This document shows, one piece after another, positions 4,541 through 26,133 of a stretch of 26,133 nt of DNA; the stretch's first letter is position 1; each line of letters starts with the position of its first letter. This stretch comes from a virus. The DNA lies in IMG/VR virus record IMGVR_UViG_3300023094_000099, positions 1-26,133 of that record, one strand, 5' to 3'. Both the position numbers and the translations under genes were made by a program. Under the pieces are notes generated by a model. It was not told the DNA's origin. It ran no database searches and saw only the letters and a program-made list of their open reading frames with translations.

Positions 4541-5691
4541 GCGTGAATCACCCCCTGCCAACGAATGTCCAACTGAGCTGCTGCCGGTGTGTTATTCCCA
4601 CCCACAGTCCAAATAGAGCCACTGATCGCGTTATTGACCATCCGCAGCACATCAGTCGTCAACAGCGGCACCGAGTCAACGATCGCTTTCAAGGTGATCG
4701 ATGCCGGATTGCCACCGTTGCCATCCTCACCAGCAAGGTTCCCCGCCGCCGCAACAGTGGTCTGGTTCTTCGTCACATACATCTGCACAACACCACCGCT
4801 TGCCGAAGCGGTCCACTGTGCGGACGCCCGAATGGAATAGCGGCCCTCGAACAGTGGCGATATCAGACCGCCTGTGGTGAAGGAGAAGAACTGGCTTTGG
4901 TAGGTGGGAGAACCGAGGAGGGACCCACCAGCACCGATACCAGCGGTTGCGTTCACGGGGGATGTGATCGCGTTGGCCCGGTCGGTGTGGAAGAACACAT
5001 CAGAACCTGGGGCCGGATACCAACCAGCCGTTTTCGCACCAGCCGGGTTCGTGGTCGAGTTGAACACGGCGTAGTACTGGAACGTGACCCCAGAATCGAG
5101 CGCATACGCGAGGGTGCCCTGTGCGTAACCGGTGGGAAGTTCTCCGATGGTGCGGACAGGGAATGGTGCGTTTGCGACGGATGTGAACGGTGCCGTCTGG
5201 GTGATTGTTGTGCCCGTGTTCGTGGCTGTCACGCCAGCGGGGACAAGGATCGTCGCGAGTGCGATTGCGCCGGGGAATGCGGCCAGGGAGGGGACGGTGG
5301 GGGATGCGGCCGCCGTTCCCTGGATGACACCAATCACCGGGTTGGAGTCAACACCATCTAGGGAATATTCGCGGTGCCAGTGGTACACGACGTCGTAGCG
5401 GGAGTTGGAGCCGGGGGCCGCGGTGGTGGAGACGGACAGTACACCGTCGTTGCCACCCAGGACCGCCCCAGACGTGACACCCCGTGTGGTCGCGCAGGTG
5501 TATGCGATGACACTGTAAGCCATCCCCGCAGTGCCGCTGACGATCGTCGCTGTGCCGCCCCAGAACAGGCCGGGGCGGATCAGGTTGCCGGATGCTTTGG
5601 TGATCAGACCGGCATCAGCAAGTTTGTGATCGAGTGGGGTGACTACACCGACTGCGTTGCCGTAGGTGCCGAGTCCTTTGAACGCGGTCAT
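4537..5691 (-). CDS. minor tail protein
   Basis: A 384-residue Gly/Ala/Thr-rich protein beginning MTAFKGLGTYGNAVG. The first part (PLDHKLADAGLITKASGNLIRPGLFWGG) and the following short beta-strand repeats resemble baseplate or receptor-binding components of actinobacteriophages. The C-terminal half (YSIRASAQWTASASGGVVQMYVTKN) looks like a jelly-roll domain of the type that binds ligands on phage tips. ATG 5691 overlaps the upstream TGA as ATGA, and its own stop overlaps the endolysin start. No catalytic residues are recognised. Tail-tip location is inferred from position after the S74 fibre and from composition. Confidence 0.8.
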   Translation of the reverse strand: MTAFKGLGTYGNAVGVVTPLDHKLADAGLITKASGNLIRPGLFWGGTATIVSGTAGMAYSVIAYTCATTRGVTSGAVLGGNDGVLSVSTTAAPGSNSRYDVVYHWHREYSLDGVDSNPVIGVIQGTAAASPTVPSLAAFPGAIALATILVPAGVTATNTGTTITQTAPFTSVANAPFPVRTIGELPTGYAQGTLAYALDSGVTFQYYAVFNSTTNPAGAKTAGWYPAPGSDVFFHTDRANAITSPVNATAGIGAGGSLLGSPTYQSQFFSFTTGGLISPLFEGRYSIRASAQWTASASGGVVQMYVTKNQTTVAAAGNLAGEDGNGGNPASITLKAIVDSVPLLTTDVLRMVNNAISGSIWTVGGNNTPAAAQLDIRWQGVIHA

Positions 5692-6720: not shown

Positions 6721-7424
6721 TCCAGGCCAATCACTGCACGAATATCGGCAACGTCTGCCCGGAGTTGTTTCACTGCAGCAACCAGCGGGACCGTGAGCCT
6801 GTCGTAGGCAATACCCGCGACGGTCCCAGCTGAGTCACGCGTGACGAACTCTCCGAACCCAAGCTCGTCAAGTTCCTCCGCTATGAACCCCACCTCTCGA
6901 GGGGCCGCATCACCCATAACTTCGACCGCCCCAATGAGGCGGAATGAACGCGGCACCATCTGGTCGATAAGGGTGAAGTCGACTTCATGCGTCTCGATGT
7001 CCTGCTTGAACCGCCGCGAAGACGGAGACAAGCCCATGCGGTTGTTCACGTCGATGTAGACCGCGTTGTAACCGATCGCCAAGACGCGACTCTTTACGTC
7101 CGACGAGACAATGCCAGGGTTGAGGTTTGCAACACCGCCCGCAGAAAACGTTCCCGCGACTGACGCGTTACCGCCTGCCGTGACTTCCCCACCGAAGTGG
7201 CCGAAACCCGTTGCGGTGACATTGCCGGTGTTGACGGCCGTGGAGAGGAGGTTGTCGATCTGTTCCTGTAGGTCCTCCACGAGCGCTCGGAGTTGCTTGA
7301 CAGCCTCTGCAGTCTGCGTCCCCGTGGGGCGCTCGAGCTCAGCCACACGATCCTTCAACGACTGCAGCACCTGCCGTAGTACGTCGAGGTCGTCCTTCGG
7401 TGGGGTGAAGTATCCGCCGGCCAT
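6717..7424 (-). CDS. tail fibre with C-terminal S74 intramolecular chaperone domain
   Basis: A 235-residue protein. Residues 10-60 form a heptad coiled coil (VLRQVLQSLKDRVAELERP, AVKQLRALVEDLQEQIDNLL). Gly-rich short repeats follow (GNVTATGFGHFGGEVTAGG), then the peptidase S74 / intramolecular chaperone domain from about 130: SPSSRRFKQDI, IDQMVPRSFRL, REVGFIAEELDELG, AYDRLTVPLVAAVKQL. The Ser135-Lys140 pair has the five-residue spacing of the self-cleaving dyad in endosialidase-type proteins. After trimerisation the domain would cut itself off. The ATG at 7424 shares one base with the upstream TGA (TGATG). This is a fibre or tip appendage; the short shaft makes it unusually compact. Confidence 0.87.
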   Translation of the reverse strand: MAGGYFTPPKDDLDVLRQVLQSLKDRVAELERPTGTQTAEAVKQLRALVEDLQEQIDNLLSTAVNTGNVTATGFGHFGGEVTAGGNASVAGTFSAGGVANLNPGIVSSDVKSRVLAIGYNAVYIDVNNRMGLSPSSRRFKQDIETHEVDFTLIDQMVPRSFRLIGAVEVMGDAAPREVGFIAEELDELGFGEFVTRDSAGTVAGIAYDRLTVPLVAAVKQLRADVADIRAVIGLD

Positions 7425-22984: not shown

Positions 22985-23162
22985 CCGCCTTCGGCTCGAC
23001 CTGCTCGCCCACCAAATCGAGCATCAACGCCTTCAATTCCTTCGCCGTCGACGCGTTCGGGGAATCGTCCATCGCCGCAGCGAGAGCCTCAGCGATCTCC
23101 CGCAGATAGCCGGAGACCTCCGCCCCATCGAGAGCAGCGACAACCGACCCCAGGACCGCCAT
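22929..23162 (-). CDS. terS: putative terminase small subunit
   Basis: A 77-residue protein with a strong GGAGGG site before ATG 23162. It begins MAVLGSVVAALDGAEVSGYLREIAEALAAAM and contains STAKELKALMLDLVGEQ, then DVGDELASKRAARRAAAS. This pattern, a helical protein with an S-x-A-x-x-L-R/K core and an Arg-rich DELxxxR end, is that of short actinobacteriophage TerS proteins lacking a visible HTH. It directly precedes and overlaps TerL, the usual place. The function would be recognition of the packaging site. The call rests on order and pattern. Confidence 0.72.
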   Translation of the reverse strand: MAVLGSVVAALDGAEVSGYLREIAEALAAAMDDSPNASTAKELKALMLDLVGEQVEPKADVGDELASKRAARRAAAS

Positions 23163-23237
23163 GAGCCCTCCAGCCGGGTCGTTTTTCTGATGGGGAGAGA
23201 AAAGCGCCCGCCCCGGAGGTCCGGAGTCGTATATGCG

Positions 23238-23609
23238 CTAGGTGGGGGTGCCGGGGTGGCTGCGGGCGCTACCGGAGGAAGGTTGGAGTCGGATGATGAC
23301 TTGTCCGACCTGTGATGTTGCGAGGCATGGGAGCGCTTGGTCCATCACGGTGCGATCGGCATACAGGATGGGGGTGACCGAGAGTACGTCGGCGTTCCGC
23401 CCGCGCATGCCGTGGCTGTGTGCGTGGATGTACTGGATGCTGCCGCCGCTGAGGTAGGTCACGCGCTCGGCACCTCGTGTGCGGTTGCTGCGCATGATGT
23501 CGTCGCTCTGCTGCACCTGGTCGAGCAGCATGCGTCGCTCGGTCGCTGTCTCGGTGAGGATGATGACGTGCTGGCCGGAGCTTGCCAGGGTCTCTTCACT
23601 GGTACGCAT
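23238..23609 (-). CDS. terminase-ATPase-like fragment without catalytic motifs
   Basis: A 123-residue protein, starting three bases after the HNH stop. I do not recognise a named family. Its middle lines up with the TerL of this same window from SSGQHVIILTETATERR (TerL SSAQRDFLAIHTAHEFK), through GAERVTYLSGGSIQYIHAHSHGMRGRNADVLSV (TerL EEGIELLNG...ARSNGSGRGFSCDRLGY), to MDQALPCLATSQVGQVII (TerL AASLPALSARPNPSVIY). The Walker A part is absent and the Walker B Asp-Glu is replaced by Thr-Pro (79-80). It may be a relic or a non-catalytic regulator of packaging. The similarity was judged by eye. Confidence 0.65.
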   Translation of the reverse strand: MRTSEETLASSGQHVIILTETATERRMLLDQVQQSDDIMRSNRTRGAERVTYLSGGSIQYIHAHSHGMRGRNADVLSVTPILYADRTVMDQALPCLATSQVGQVIIRLQPSSGSARSHPGTPT

Positions 23610-23612
23610 TGG

Positions 23613-23906
23613 TCACCAGGCTCTCGATGTGGGGAACTGTCCGCGTGTGGTGTTCCCGCGGCTGACGTTGCAGACGTAGTGGGATGCGCGGAAGTTGGCG
23701 GGCCTGGCGCTCTCGCCTCCGAGGGATACAGGGGCGGCATGGTCGAGGTTGAACAGCAACGGCTGTTGCGTGCCCCGCCTATAAGGCGAGGTGTAGTCGA
23801 TGGGGCCTTTACTGTTGTTGCATATCCAGCAGGGTGCGTTGGTCTTGGCGCATTCGGCTTTGAAGCGGGCTCGTTCCCGTTCGTAGTCTTTGCCGTACTT
23901 CGTCAC
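23613..23906 (-). CDS. HNH endonuclease (packaging-associated)
   Basis: A 97-residue protein starting at GTG 23906. The HNH/treble-clef motif is complete: CWICN (Cys26, Cys29), LFNLDHAAPVSLGG (Asp55-His56), Asn71 in ARPANFRASH, and the second pair in YVCNVSRGN (His76, Cys79). The N-terminus is basic and helical (DYERERARFKAECAKTN). Short HNH proteins of this type sit beside terminase genes in many phages with cohesive ends and are needed with TerL for specific end cutting. The position just upstream of the TerS/TerL genes supports that role rather than homing. Confidence 0.88.
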   Translation of the reverse strand: MTKYGKDYERERARFKAECAKTNAPCWICNNSKGPIDYTSPYRRGTQQPLLFNLDHAAPVSLGGESARPANFRASHYVCNVSRGNTTRGQFPTSRAW

Positions 23907-23909
23907 GGC

Positions 23910-24071
23910 TTAGCTCTCGTCCTTGTCGTTGGCTTCGAGCATCCGCATCATTGCGGCTCGAGCATCGTCACTGATGCGTTGGCTGACGGTGGTGGCGGCT
24001 TCGTGTAGCGGGCTGTACACATGGGCGTAGAGGGGCGCGCCTTGCCCGTCATAGCCGGATGGTTCTGTCAT
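23910..24071 (-). CDS. 53-residue hypothetical protein
   Basis: A short gene starting at ATG 24071, which overlaps the TGA of the upstream gene as ATGA, and ending with TAA three bases before the HNH GTG. It begins MTEPSGYDGQGAPLYAHVYS and ends in a helical acidic stretch (ISDDARAAMMRMLEANDKDES). No motif is recognised. Overlap on one side and tight spacing on the other, with normal codon use, support it as a real coupled gene. Confidence 0.65.
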   Translation of the reverse strand: MTEPSGYDGQGAPLYAHVYSPLHEAATTVSQRISDDARAAMMRMLEANDKDES

Positions 24072-24313
24072 GCGGGGATGAGTCGCACTTTGCGGCGTAG
24101 CTTCTGCTTGCCGCGCCGTTTGATTGTGTTGCCTTTGCTGTCGAGCACAAGTTCACGGATCAGGACGATGGGGCCGATACGGGTGAACGGATTCACGGGC
24201 AGCACGCACTGATCCAAGGGGAGGTTGGTGTAACCCTCGCTGTCGGCCGCCGCATACTGGGCATACCCGAGACGCACCGCAAGGTCGATATCGAGGCGTT
24301 CGTCCTCAGGCAT
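24068..24313 (-). CDS. 81-residue hypothetical protein
   Basis: The start ATG 24313 overlaps the upstream gene by 8 bases and the stop overlaps the next gene as ATGA. The sequence has LDIDLAVRLGYAQYAAADSEGY, then RIGPIVLIRELVLDSKGN and a basic end (KRRGKQKLRRKVRLIP). The basic tail may bind nucleic acid, but no family is recognised. Membership in a chain of overlapping small genes ahead of the HNH and terminase genes is the main support. Confidence 0.7.
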   Translation of the reverse strand: MPEDERLDIDLAVRLGYAQYAAADSEGYTNLPLDQCVLPVNPFTRIGPIVLIRELVLDSKGNTIKRRGKQKLRRKVRLIPA

Positions 24314-24437
24314 CTTTGGTCTCCGTGTTCGCGTACAACTCGAGGTAGATCAGGTCGGCGTCTTCGCCGTCGTTGGCTCGCTTCAGTGCATCCATGAGGG
24401 CAGCGCCGGAGATTGCCCACCAGCCGAGGTCAGTCAT
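24306..24437 (-). CDS. 43-residue hypothetical protein
   Basis: The start ATG 24437 overlaps the upstream stop as ATGA and the frame ends 8 bases inside the next gene. The product is acidic and helical: MTDLGWWAISGAALMDALKR, ANDGEDADLIYLELYANTE. The longer upstream frame runs through the hairpin region and has no start support. Similar small acidic proteins (ALMDALKRANDGEDADLIY) occur scattered in actinobacteriophages, without known function. Confidence 0.62.
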   Translation of the reverse strand: MTDLGWWAISGAALMDALKRANDGEDADLIYLELYANTETKDA

Positions 24438-24586
24438 CGGGTGGTTCTCTTGATCGCCTGGTTGATCGTGTAGTTCCAAAGCCATTTGCTCAGATCTACT
24501 GCTCGCTGTTCCTCGGCAGAGATCGGCCGGCCGGGCGCGGTCGTGTTTGATCGCTTCCGGCTGCTGAGCGTACGCGGAATGATCAT
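24434..24586 (-). CDS. 50-residue basic hypothetical protein
   Basis: The start ATG 24586 has an ideal site (AAAGGAAA). The product begins MIIPRTLSSRKRSNTTAPGR and ends DLSKWLWNYTINQAIKRTTR. The N-terminal half is basic and Ser/Thr-rich, the C-terminal half a helix. The stop overlaps the next start as ATGA. It is the first gene after the tRNA and hairpin array and would be translated from the same transcript. Function is unknown. The basic N-terminus could contact nucleic acid. Confidence 0.65.
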   Translation of the reverse strand: MIIPRTLSSRKRSNTTAPGRPISAEEQRAVDLSKWLWNYTINQAIKRTTR

Positions 24587-24608
24587 CGGGTTTCCTTTCG
24601 AGGCACCC

Positions 24609-24754
24609 GAGCGGGGCGGGCTGCAGTGGGCAGCACAACGCGCCCCGCTCAGGTGAACCCCACCATTCCCGGAGGAAGGTGGGGAGCAATGACGTGACTC
24701 CCGCGCGGGTAGGCGCGTTGACGCACCAGTCACGTCAGACGCTAGCTAGGCGTC
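24609..24754 (-). repeat. four adjacent hairpins between tRNA and small-gene cluster
   Basis: Perfect inverted repeats follow each other: 24609-24618 with 24641-24650 (10 bp, inner 5-bp stem 24620-24624/24630-24634); 24658-24664 with 24678-24684 (7 bp, inner 4 bp 24666-24669/24674-24677); 24690-24699 with 24728-24737 (10 bp, enclosing the palindrome CCCGCGCGGG at 24700-24709); and 24738-24742 with 24750-24754 (5 bp, 7-base loop). Spacers are 0-7 bases. No gene fits here. Confidence 0.8.
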
Positions 24755-24756
24755 CG

Positions 24757-24830
24757 TGGCAGGGGAGGGAATCGAACCCTCAATCGCGCGGCTTATGAGG
24801 CCGGCCAGTTACCGTTACTTGCACCCTGAC
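24757..24830 (-). tRNA. tRNA-like gene, anticodon CAU (Met or Ile2)
   Basis: A 74-base cloverleaf on the minus strand. The T arm is perfect (GAGGG, loop TTCGATT, CCCTC). The anticodon loop is CTCATAA with CAU at 24795-24797. The acceptor is GTCAGGG with CCCTGCC and discriminator A; no CCA is encoded. The D loop has GG at the right place. Weak points are a mismatch at 2-71, one at 27-43, and a D stem with only two pairs. It may be a functional but divergent phage tRNA or a decaying one. Confidence 0.68.
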
Positions 24831-24835
24831 GTGGG

Positions 24836-24887
24836 CCGCTGCCTGTTGGGGGGAACAGTCAGCGGTTGTGACACCCATCGGGGGTGT
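24836..24887 (-). repeat. two hairpins upstream of the tRNA
   Basis: 24836-24841 pairs with 24860-24865 (6 bp), continued after one mismatch by 24843-24847 with 24854-24858 (5 bp), around a loop of six G (six C on the minus-strand RNA). It ends five bases from the tRNA 5' end. A second hairpin is 24871-24876 with 24882-24887 (6 bp). Both could direct tRNA processing or form part of a larger structured RNA. Confidence 0.75.
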
Positions 24888-24933
24888 GTTTATCGATCCG
24901 CGACCGTACGGGGGCACGACCAGTCGCGAAGTG

Positions 24934-25146
24934 TTAGCTGTCTTTGCCGTATGTCTGGTTGCGGGCTTTTCGCAACGTGTTGATCAGACGGTTCAGGCCG
25001 GAGCGTTCCATGTCGATCGCGGATGCTGTACCGCCGATGATCATGGTCACGTAGACGCCCGGATAGTCGCGGTGCCAAGCGACCTCGATATGGTCGGACG
25101 GTACGTTCTCGACGGCGGTGGAGGGGTAGAACTTTTCTGCAGGCAT
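24934..25146 (-). CDS. 70-residue hypothetical protein
   Basis: It starts MPAEKFYPSTAVENVPSDHI at ATG 25146, preceded by AAAGAGG. It has one likely beta segment (PGVYVTMIIGGTASAID) and a basic C-terminal helix (RSGLNRLINTLRKARNQTYGK). It is the only gene in the structured non-coding stretch between the tRNA and the right-hand terminator. No family is recognised. The sandwich of a short beta sheet and a basic helix could fit a small DNA- or RNA-binding protein, but this is a guess from composition. Confidence 0.68.
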   Translation of the reverse strand: MPAEKFYPSTAVENVPSDHIEVAWHRDYPGVYVTMIIGGTASAIDMERSGLNRLINTLRKARNQTYGKDS

Positions 25147-25516
25147 AAGCGCCTCTTTCGTTTCAACGTCGTCTCGACGTCTATCCGCCCATTTGGCGGA
25201 AGTGGGAGGGCGGGTGCGGGCTGGGTCCTACCCGAATGTGAGGACCAGCCCGTCACCCGCGACCGGTTGCAGTGGTTTCTCCCGTCACTGCAACAGGTGT
25301 GACGGTCGGCGTATTGCCGCTACCGTCGTTCGGCTATTGCGGGCCGAAGTGTGCCCACCTCCGCACAGGATGTTCTGCGTCCACGCTGACCGCATGCCAT
25401 CAGCAATCCGGTGGGGGTCACATGCCTGTGTGGGGCGGGTGGAAGGTTCCGGTGACTCGGCGGCTTGGCCGATCATGTCGGCTATGGTGTGCCCGCGGTC
25501 CCGGAAGTTTAAACAA

Positions 25517-25549
25517 GAATGCCTCGGGACATAGTCCACCGAGGCACTC
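25517..25549 (-). terminator. Rho-independent terminator for the right-hand gene
   Basis: An 11-bp stem (25517-25527 with 25539-25549, 11-base loop) is followed on the minus strand by TTGTTT. One of the 11 positions is a G-U pair in minus-strand RNA but an A-C mismatch on the plus strand, so the structure favours minus-strand transcription. It lies 39 bases after the stop at 25589. Confidence 0.75.
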
Positions 25550-25558
25550 ACAATTGTG
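25549..25558. repeat. 10-bp palindrome CACAATTGTG
   Basis: A perfect palindrome overlaps the terminator edge, 30 bases after the stop of the right-hand gene. It could be an operator-type site, but one copy alone is weak evidence. Confidence 0.3.
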
Positions 25559-25588
25559 CCACATTCGGGTGCGTGGTGCGGTCAGTTT

Positions 25589-26133
25589 TCATCCGGCGTG
25601 TCGTTCGTTGAGTTCCTCCCCAAGTTCTTCCACTGCGGCGATTCCTTCCCAGACCGTTTCGCATGCTCGGCAGATCGCATTTGGGTGGATCGCTTCACCT
25701 GTTTTCGGCAGCCGGTACTGGATGACGACGGGGAAGATCATCTCTTTCCCGTCGAGGTCAAGCCATGTGCGTTTCCCGCATACCGGGCATGGGGTGGTGA
25801 CTTCGATGCGTTTCAGTGGTTCGAGAATGTTGCGGATCAGGTTCGCCCACCGGCGCAGTTCGGAGATGTACCACTGGTCGTCAGCGCCGGTGCGGTCGTA
25901 GGCGATGTACCACTGGCGGAGATCTGCGACGGGTTCGCGGGTGGGTTGGATGTTGACGATGCGGCACCAGTCGCCGATCGCCGCGGTCATCTTCCCGTAC
26001 TCGAACAGGGCGTCGGAGTCGATCAGGTTCCGGGTGGACTTCAACGAGCTCGACCCTGCAGCGGTGTTGCTGGACGGGTTCACCGCATCACGGAGTTGGT
26101 GCAGCAGGGCCGGGTGTTCGACGGAGTGGGCTT
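25589..26133 (-). CDS. hypothetical protein with zinc ribbon, 5' end outside window
   Basis: The frame is open to the window edge, and its upstream codons (AHSVEHPALLHQLRDAVNPS) read smoothly into the GTG at 26083, so the true start lies outside. The visible 180 residues have NTAAGSSSLKSTRNLIDSDAL, a helical region with WCRIVNIQ and WYISELRRWANLIRNILEP, then a zinc-ribbon-type pair, CPVCGKRTW and CRACETVW. It ends in an acidic helix. Two CxxC knuckles suggest Zn binding, perhaps nucleic acid contact. I recognise the type as a common actinobacteriophage protein near the left genome end, without known function. Confidence 0.8.
   Translation of the reverse strand, partial: AHSVEHPALLHQLRDAVNPSSNTAAGSSSLKSTRNLIDSDALFEYGKMTAAIGDWCRIVNIQPTREPVADLRQWYIAYDRTGADDQWYISELRRWANLIRNILEPLKRIEVTTPCPVCGKRTWLDLDGKEMIFPVVIQYRLPKTGEAIHPNAICRACETVWEGIAAVEELGEELNERHAG

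What the first reader, a model, noticed from the sequence alone, without database searches (positions are those of the whole stretch)
24609..24887. Dense array of perfect hairpins enclosing a tRNA: candidate new structured RNA
In 280 bases there are six inverted repeats (four 3' and two 5' of a tRNA-like gene on the minus strand) separated by 0-7 bases, with stems of 10, 7, 10, 5, 11 (one mismatch) and 6 bp, and inner stems in several loops. One loop is six identical C on the RNA. TGACGTG or its complement occurs at 24690, 24731 and 24827. Such regular packing is far more than a set of terminators and leaves no room for coding. It could be a long structured ncRNA, a tRNA processing unit, or a packaging/recombination site.
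Basis: partly seen in the sequence, partly recalled or inferred. Interest (0 to 1): 0.75.

Follow-up and report, generated by a model that had tools for sequence, protein, structure and literature searches.

The report
Phage tRNA among shared terminator-type hairpins
The hairpins around this phage tRNA are real but are not one RNA machine; most are private to this phage, while one belongs to a previously uncatalogued RNA hairpin that bacteria place at the start of a nuclease gene and that phages keep near their own tRNAs.

Summary
Six hairpins and a CAT-anticodon tRNA sit in about 280 bp of an actinophage contig, and the stretch folds better than shuffled sequence (z -4.8). It is not unique in the window: the non-coding stretch at 25154-25433 is stronger (z -8.5).

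The "one new structured RNA" reading fails. Four copies are nearly identical and give no information. Relatives with about 80% identical terminase have a different tRNA and different hairpins, or none. The TGACGTG hairpin has no homologue, and TGACGTG itself is not enriched.

One hairpin is conserved. 24658-24684 (minus strand), GCUCCCCACC-NNNN-UCCG-NNNN-U-GGUGGGG, belongs to an actinobacterial family with compensatory changes (5 pairs, 18 cells, 0/500 shuffles) and is not in Rfam. In bacteria it starts 7-8 nt after a -10 box, is followed by a U-tract, and directly precedes a NYN-nuclease gene. Every NYN homologue found by protein search has such a hairpin. In phages it lies beside tRNAs or in a promoter-hairpin-terminator slot after a DUF7341 gene.

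Best reading: a promoter-proximal attenuator/terminator module, embedded here in a tRNA spacer and without its U-tract.

The parts
25589..26083 (-). Gene for a 164-aa DUF7341-like protein with a CxxC...CxxC zinc ribbon; upstream neighbour of the leader region
   Evidence: phrog_1467 E 5e-5; aligns with L004 homologue that matches DUF7341
25517..25549 (-). First leader hairpin (11-bp stem then UUGUUU), corresponding to hairpin 1 after DUF7341 genes in relatives; preceded by an extended -10-like TGGCACAAT
   Evidence: the promoter is an inference
25150..25210 (-). Leader of the 70-aa gene with two short hairpins before the ribosome-binding site, both covarying in homologues L018, L019 and L020
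   Evidence: pairs counted by hand
24934..25146 (-). Gene for a 70-aa protein (weak phrog_10659 match), linked to tRNA loci in several phages
24871..24887 (-). 6-bp hairpin upstream of the tRNA
24836..24865 (-). 11-pair hairpin with one mismatch and a CCCCCC loop (RNA strand), 5 nt upstream of the tRNA
24756..24830 (-). tRNA with CAT anticodon (Met, or lysidine-type Ile2; not resolved)
24738..24754 (-). 5-bp hairpin directly downstream of the tRNA
24690..24737 (-). Branched hairpin closed by the perfect 10-bp TGACGTGACT stem; no homologue found
24649..24689 (-). R1 element: conserved actinobacterial/actinophage attenuator-type hairpin (stem 24658-24684), here without its U-tract
   Evidence: model match 55.2 bits
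24604..24655 (-). 20-nt-arm hairpin (17 pairs) immediately before a ribosome-binding site; reads as a 5'-UTR hairpin
24434..24586 (-). Small ORF (50 aa) starting right after the last hairpin
   Evidence: sequence; mechanical ORF

Best explanation
The stretch is a composite non-coding tRNA and regulatory spacer of an actinophage, lying between a DUF7341 gene and the right-end/terminase genes. It is built from independent hairpins, not from one structured RNA. One hairpin (24658-24684 minus, called R1 here) is a copy of a widespread actinobacterial attenuator/terminator-type RNA hairpin. In its usual setting it forms at the very 5' end of a transcript, stops many polymerases at the following U-tract, and so throttles the gene downstream (a NYN nuclease in bacteria); in phages it closes tRNA operons or fills a promoter-hairpin-terminator leader. 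In this window the 70-aa gene and the tRNA lie between the DUF7341 leader hairpin (25517-25549) and R1, and R1 has lost its U-tract, so here it more likely acts as a weak terminator or as an end-protecting or processing hairpin of the tRNA transcript. The other hairpins are lineage-specific; the last one (24604-24655) sits as a 5'-UTR hairpin before a small gene. Shown: anatomy, homology, compensatory changes, -10 spacing, NYN linkage. Inferred: termination/attenuation and its weakening here.
For: Private array: close copies identical, relatives different. R1 family: 14 real viral stretches and 19 bacterial ones, compensatory changes on 38 distinct rows, 5 pairs, 18 cells, 0/500 shuffles, U-tract in nearly all copies, -10 box 7-8 nt before the element in 15 of 25, NYN gene behind 13 of 19 genome hits, and 4 of 4 NYN-positive Microbacteriaceae genomes with R1 in front of the gene, p 6e-7. 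Distant NYN homologues also have it. Phages: 8 of 14 copies within 400 nt of a tRNA; terminator slot after DUF7341 in six of six loci long enough to show it.
Against: No transcript data. Termination was not tested; the window copy has no U-tract and no -10 box of its own. Some bacterial copies (L064, L066, L071, L072, L074) have no NYN gene. The private hairpins could still have an RNA function that the near-identical copies cannot reveal.
Confidence: 0.62

Rival explanations
1. A new structured non-coding RNA (or large tRNA-containing precursor) whose six hairpins work together, in the manner of GOLLD or ROOL next to phage tRNAs.
For: Dense packing and z -4.8; hairpin-rich spacers also beside tRNAs in L004, L033 and L034.
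Against: No Rfam match besides the tRNA. Hairpins are not shared with relatives except R1, and R1 occurs on its own elsewhere. A neighbouring stretch is more structured. The hairpins fold independently in the centroid structure.
Confidence: 0.12
2. A lambda pR'-tR'-like late switch: promoter and terminator hairpins between DUF7341 and the terminase side, with the DUF7341 protein acting as antiterminator.
For: Conserved order DUF7341 - extended -10-like box - hairpin - terminator in L102-L104, L106-L108, L004 and Footloose; zinc ribbon in the protein.
Against: The DUF7341 model has no significant match in the PDB. In the window the module is split by the 70-aa gene and the tRNA, and the promoter is weak (one search finds none).
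Confidence: 0.14
3. The inverted repeats are DNA sites (operators, recombination or packaging sites) rather than RNA structures.
For: TGACGTGACT/AGTCACGTCA is a perfect 10-bp inverted repeat.
Against: TGACGTG is not enriched. The repeat is not conserved. In R1 the bulged U is kept while paired positions covary, with strand polarity and a 3' U-tract, as expected of RNA. The conserved terminase-proximal sequence lies about 1.4 kb away.
Confidence: 0.06

Closest known systems
Intrinsic (Rho-independent) transcription terminators and attenuators
   Same: GC-rich stem followed by a U-tract; in the R1 family at the transcript start before a gene or at the end of tRNA operons
   Different: Sequence-conserved stem ends, bulged U and UCCG-type loop; usually at the very 5' end (7-8 nt after the -10 box); the window copy lacks the U-tract
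Phage lambda pR'-tR' late leader with antiterminator Q (from general knowledge; the Q / late-promoter setting is described in PMC6266700)
   Same: Promoter followed at once by a terminator, downstream of a regulator-like gene and on the way to the late genes
   Different: DUF7341 shows no similarity to Q by fold search; tRNAs and small genes follow; termination and antitermination untested
GOLLD and ROOL RNAs (PMC12286853)
   Same: Structured RNA candidates that can lie near phage tRNAs (from general knowledge)
   Different: No Rfam match; short independent hairpins; no conservation of the whole
Phage-encoded tRNAs, including those that evade tRNA-cleaving defences (PMC10264068, PMC11555353)
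   Same: A phage tRNA gene between early-type and structural genes
   Different: A single tRNA enclosed by hairpins, one of which is shared with the leader of a NYN nuclease gene

Membership tests
tRNA (RF00005) | Cloverleaf, anticodon and T arm scoring above the family cut-off | tested here: met
   39.5 bits against a cut-off of 29; ARAGORN tRNA-Met(CAT)
R1 hairpin family defined here | CCCCACC/GGUGGGG-type outer stem, bulged U, 4-bp inner stem and 4-nt loop | tested here: met
   Window 24649-24689 minus, 55.2 bits, E 6e-13. The window sequence is among the model's own training rows, so this is not independent; the independent support is the sharing with L004, found by TerL homology
R1 hairpin family defined here | U-tract after the stem | tested here: not met
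   GGTGGGG-TTCACC in the window; present in nearly all other copies
R1 hairpin family defined here | -10 box ending 7-8 nt before the element | tested here: not met
   No TANNNT there in the window (sequence); 15 of 25 other copies have it
Intrinsic terminator | GC-rich stem plus U-run | tested here: not met
   No minus-strand terminator-like site in 23000-26133, so the window copy is not filed as a terminator
Intrinsic terminator | Terminates transcription | not testable with these tools
   Needs in vitro transcription or Term-seq
Lambda Q / pR'-tR' type late switch | Regulator with the fold of a known antiterminator | tested here: inconclusive
   No PDB match with E <= 0.001 for the DUF7341 model, pLDDT 79, nine sequences in the alignment
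GOLLD / ROOL and other Rfam RNAs | Covariance-model match | tested here: not met
   Only the tRNA at gathering; only chance-level others at E up to 5
cos/packaging site | Conserved sequence next to the terminase genes | tested here: not met
   The conserved terminase-proximal sequence is at about 23187-23226, not in the array

The most novel reading that the evidence does not exclude
The R1 hairpin is the sensing element of a sporadic, partly prophage-linked nuclease gene. NYN-nuclease expression is held down by a hairpin-terminator of the kind used in phage leaders, and phages that read through or titrate such hairpins (for example with orphan copies next to tRNAs) trigger or blunt the nuclease. 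The window's array would then be a counter-defence cassette combining a tRNA with an RNA decoy.
Probability: 0.12. Interest if true: 0.85.

Novelty: new variant of a known kind. Interest (0 to 1): 0.5.

Why it matters
The array itself is an ordinary, fast-changing phage tRNA spacer. It led, however, to an RNA element that is absent from Rfam and shared between actinophages and the 5' ends of NYN-nuclease genes in sporadic actinobacterial genomes. Compensatory changes, a fixed promoter distance and gene linkage all support it. If it is an attenuator, it gives a simple testable model of how a nuclease gene, in some cases next to prophage genes, is kept off and what switches it on. It also makes the question of why phages surround tRNAs with hairpins testable.

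Tried and rejected
Close copies (L002, L003, L015) are at least 99.9% identical, so covariation of the private hairpins cannot be measured. TerL alignment in genome contigs: nothing. The 70-aa protein in isolate phages: no match. TGACGTGACT hairpin scan: only one unrelated virus and a repeat, judged chance. Viral pattern hits L040, L045 and L049 judged chance: longer loops and no U-tract. The consensus promoter scan found nothing in the window. The DUF7341 AlphaFold model (pLDDT 79) gave no significant PDB match, so the Q-like idea stays unsupported. NYN against PADLOC gave only a weak HEC-09 match (E 1e-4), not taken as proof of defence. The first DUF7341 alignment was too divergent for a collection scan; a narrower one worked. 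Literature searches found no description of this hairpin, but only open papers are held and only a few term sets were tried.

Full report
Observation. The window is an IMG/VR viral record of 26,133 bp; its identifiable genes (TerL, portal, protease, capsid, tape measure) lie on the minus strand. The stretch 24600-24895 folds at -144.2 kcal/mol, z -4.84, none of 200 shuffles as good. The signal comes from the spacers (3' part z -5.8, 5' part -3.6), not from the tRNA. It is not the most structured place: in 280-nt windows it ranks 7th of 185, behind among others the second non-coding stretch at 25154-25433 (z -8.5). The TGACGTG motif is not enriched.

Is it one RNA? Three other contigs carry the stretch at 99.9-100% identity and are uninformative. 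Contigs with about 80% identical TerL differ: L004 has a tRNA-Trp within its own, different set of hairpins (z about -3.8 upstream of the tRNA), and L010 has neither. Rfam sees only the tRNA. The perfect TGACGTGACT stem finds only unrelated sequence. So the array as such is not conserved. Hairpin-rich spacers beside tRNAs also occur in other phages carrying the upstream 70-aa gene, L033 and L034 (z -3.5, -3.8), but not in all: L029 has z 0.3.

The conserved piece. L004 shares one hairpin with the window, TTGCTCCCCACC-N4-TCCG-N4-T-GGTGGGG, whose inner stem is changed on both sides. A pattern scan gave 17 viral stretches, three of them judged chance, and further copies turned up in isolate phages such as Hortus1 and Footloose. 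In genome contigs a stricter pattern gave 19 stretches, all Actinomycetes. Aligned, the family shows compensatory changes. This first test is limited because the search pattern fixed the outer stem. A covariance model then found copies free of that constraint. On 38 distinct rows five pairs change on both sides in 18 cells, reached by 0 of 500 shuffles and lost when partners are slid, and the outer stem now varies too (A-U to G-C in 7 rows). The alignment is fitted to the model and so leans towards it. No Rfam family covers it.

Where it sits in bacteria. In copies that are not behind a DUF7341 gene or a tRNA, a TANNNT box ends exactly 7 or 8 nt before the element in 15 of 25, against 0-2 in control bins, so the hairpin would be the 5' end of a transcript. 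A U-tract follows, then often a ribosome-binding site and start codon within about 20-35 nt. In 13 of 19 genome hits the gene encodes a NYN-domain protein (PF01936). Searching for the protein instead of the hairpin: 4 of 300 Microbacteriaceae genomes have it, and all 4 have the hairpin before it; 6 of the other 296 have a hairpin hit (p = 6e-7), and one of those six has a more diverged NYN gene behind it. Phylum-wide, 4 of 397 genomes have the protein. Besides G001, already counted, the other three are only about 32% identical to the query set, and each still has a hairpin of the same design before the gene (two by the model at weak E-values, one by eye). Each of the nine genomes checked holds a single copy. 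Some NYN loci adjoin phage-like genes (L058, L059, by eye).

Where it sits in phages. 8 of 14 phage copies lie within 400 nt of a tRNA, against 1 of 22 cellular copies (p = 7e-4); in Hortus1 and L035 it starts 2-3 nt after a tRNA. In another group it follows a gene like the window's 25589-26083 (DUF7341 with a zinc ribbon). Searching by that protein, six of seven loci extend past the gene and show a TGCTATCCT-like box, a first hairpin and then a terminator. The terminator is R1 in L102, L104 and L108 and unrelated in L103, L106 and L107, so position and terminator character are kept while the hairpin itself is exchanged. Footloose shows the same order: DUF7341, box, hairpin, R1, tRNA-Leu, then right-end genes up to HNH, with TerS and TerL at the left end. 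In the window the first hairpin (25517-25549) and R1 (24658-24684) are about 830 bp apart, with the 70-aa gene and the tRNA between them, and R1 has lost its U-tract.

Mechanism. Most likely R1 is a terminator used as a promoter-proximal attenuator (shown: position, structure, conservation, gene linkage; inferred: termination and regulation). In the window it is probably a weakened terminator or an RNA-end hairpin in a tRNA spacer. The 24604-24655 hairpin directly precedes a ribosome-binding site and a small ORF and reads as a 5'-UTR hairpin. A lambda-like late switch with DUF7341 as antiterminator is attractive by position but unsupported: the AlphaFold model has no significant match in the PDB.

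Verdict. Observation confirmed, interpretation partly supported. The array is an ordinary composite. The conserved hairpin inside it is a new RNA element of a known kind (terminator/attenuator) with an unexpected tie between phage tRNA loci and NYN nucleases.

Noticed in passing
window 25150-25210 (minus); L018, L019, L020: The 70-aa gene has a leader with two short hairpins before its ribosome-binding site; both stems change on both sides between homologues (UCCGCC/GGCGGA, CCCGGC/GCCGGG, CCCUUC/GAAGGG; ACGUCG/CGACGU, ACAGC/GCUGU, ACCGC/GCGGU). Possible separate RNA element (pairs counted by hand).
   Followed up: partly
L029/L030, L032, L033, L034: Homologues of the window's 70-aa protein are followed within about 100-360 nt by tRNA genes in several phages, including one locus with 31 tRNAs and a tmRNA (L020); the small protein may have a role tied to tRNA loci.
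   Followed up: partly
window 25154-25433 (minus): Most strongly structured 280-nt stretch of the window (z -8.5), non-coding, between the DUF7341 gene and the 70-aa gene; not explained beyond the leader hairpins.
   Followed up: no
window 23238-23609 (minus): 123-aa protein matching phrog_6910, a family that also matches the N-terminal part of the adjacent TerL; possibly a duplicated or split terminase fragment next to TerS.
   Followed up: no
L004 4740-5440: An HNH-type gene follows tRNA-Trp and is itself followed by a sequence resembling the 3' part of a tRNA (GGTTCGAATCC), as if a homing endonuclease had inserted in a tRNA cluster.
   Followed up: no
L004 about 4850-4900; L018 about 6940-7000: Similar leaders (CCCCGCGAC...CCGGGGC hairpin then CGACTTT..GGAGTCG overlapping the ribosome-binding site) before genes in two different phages; not in Rfam at gathering.
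   Followed up: no
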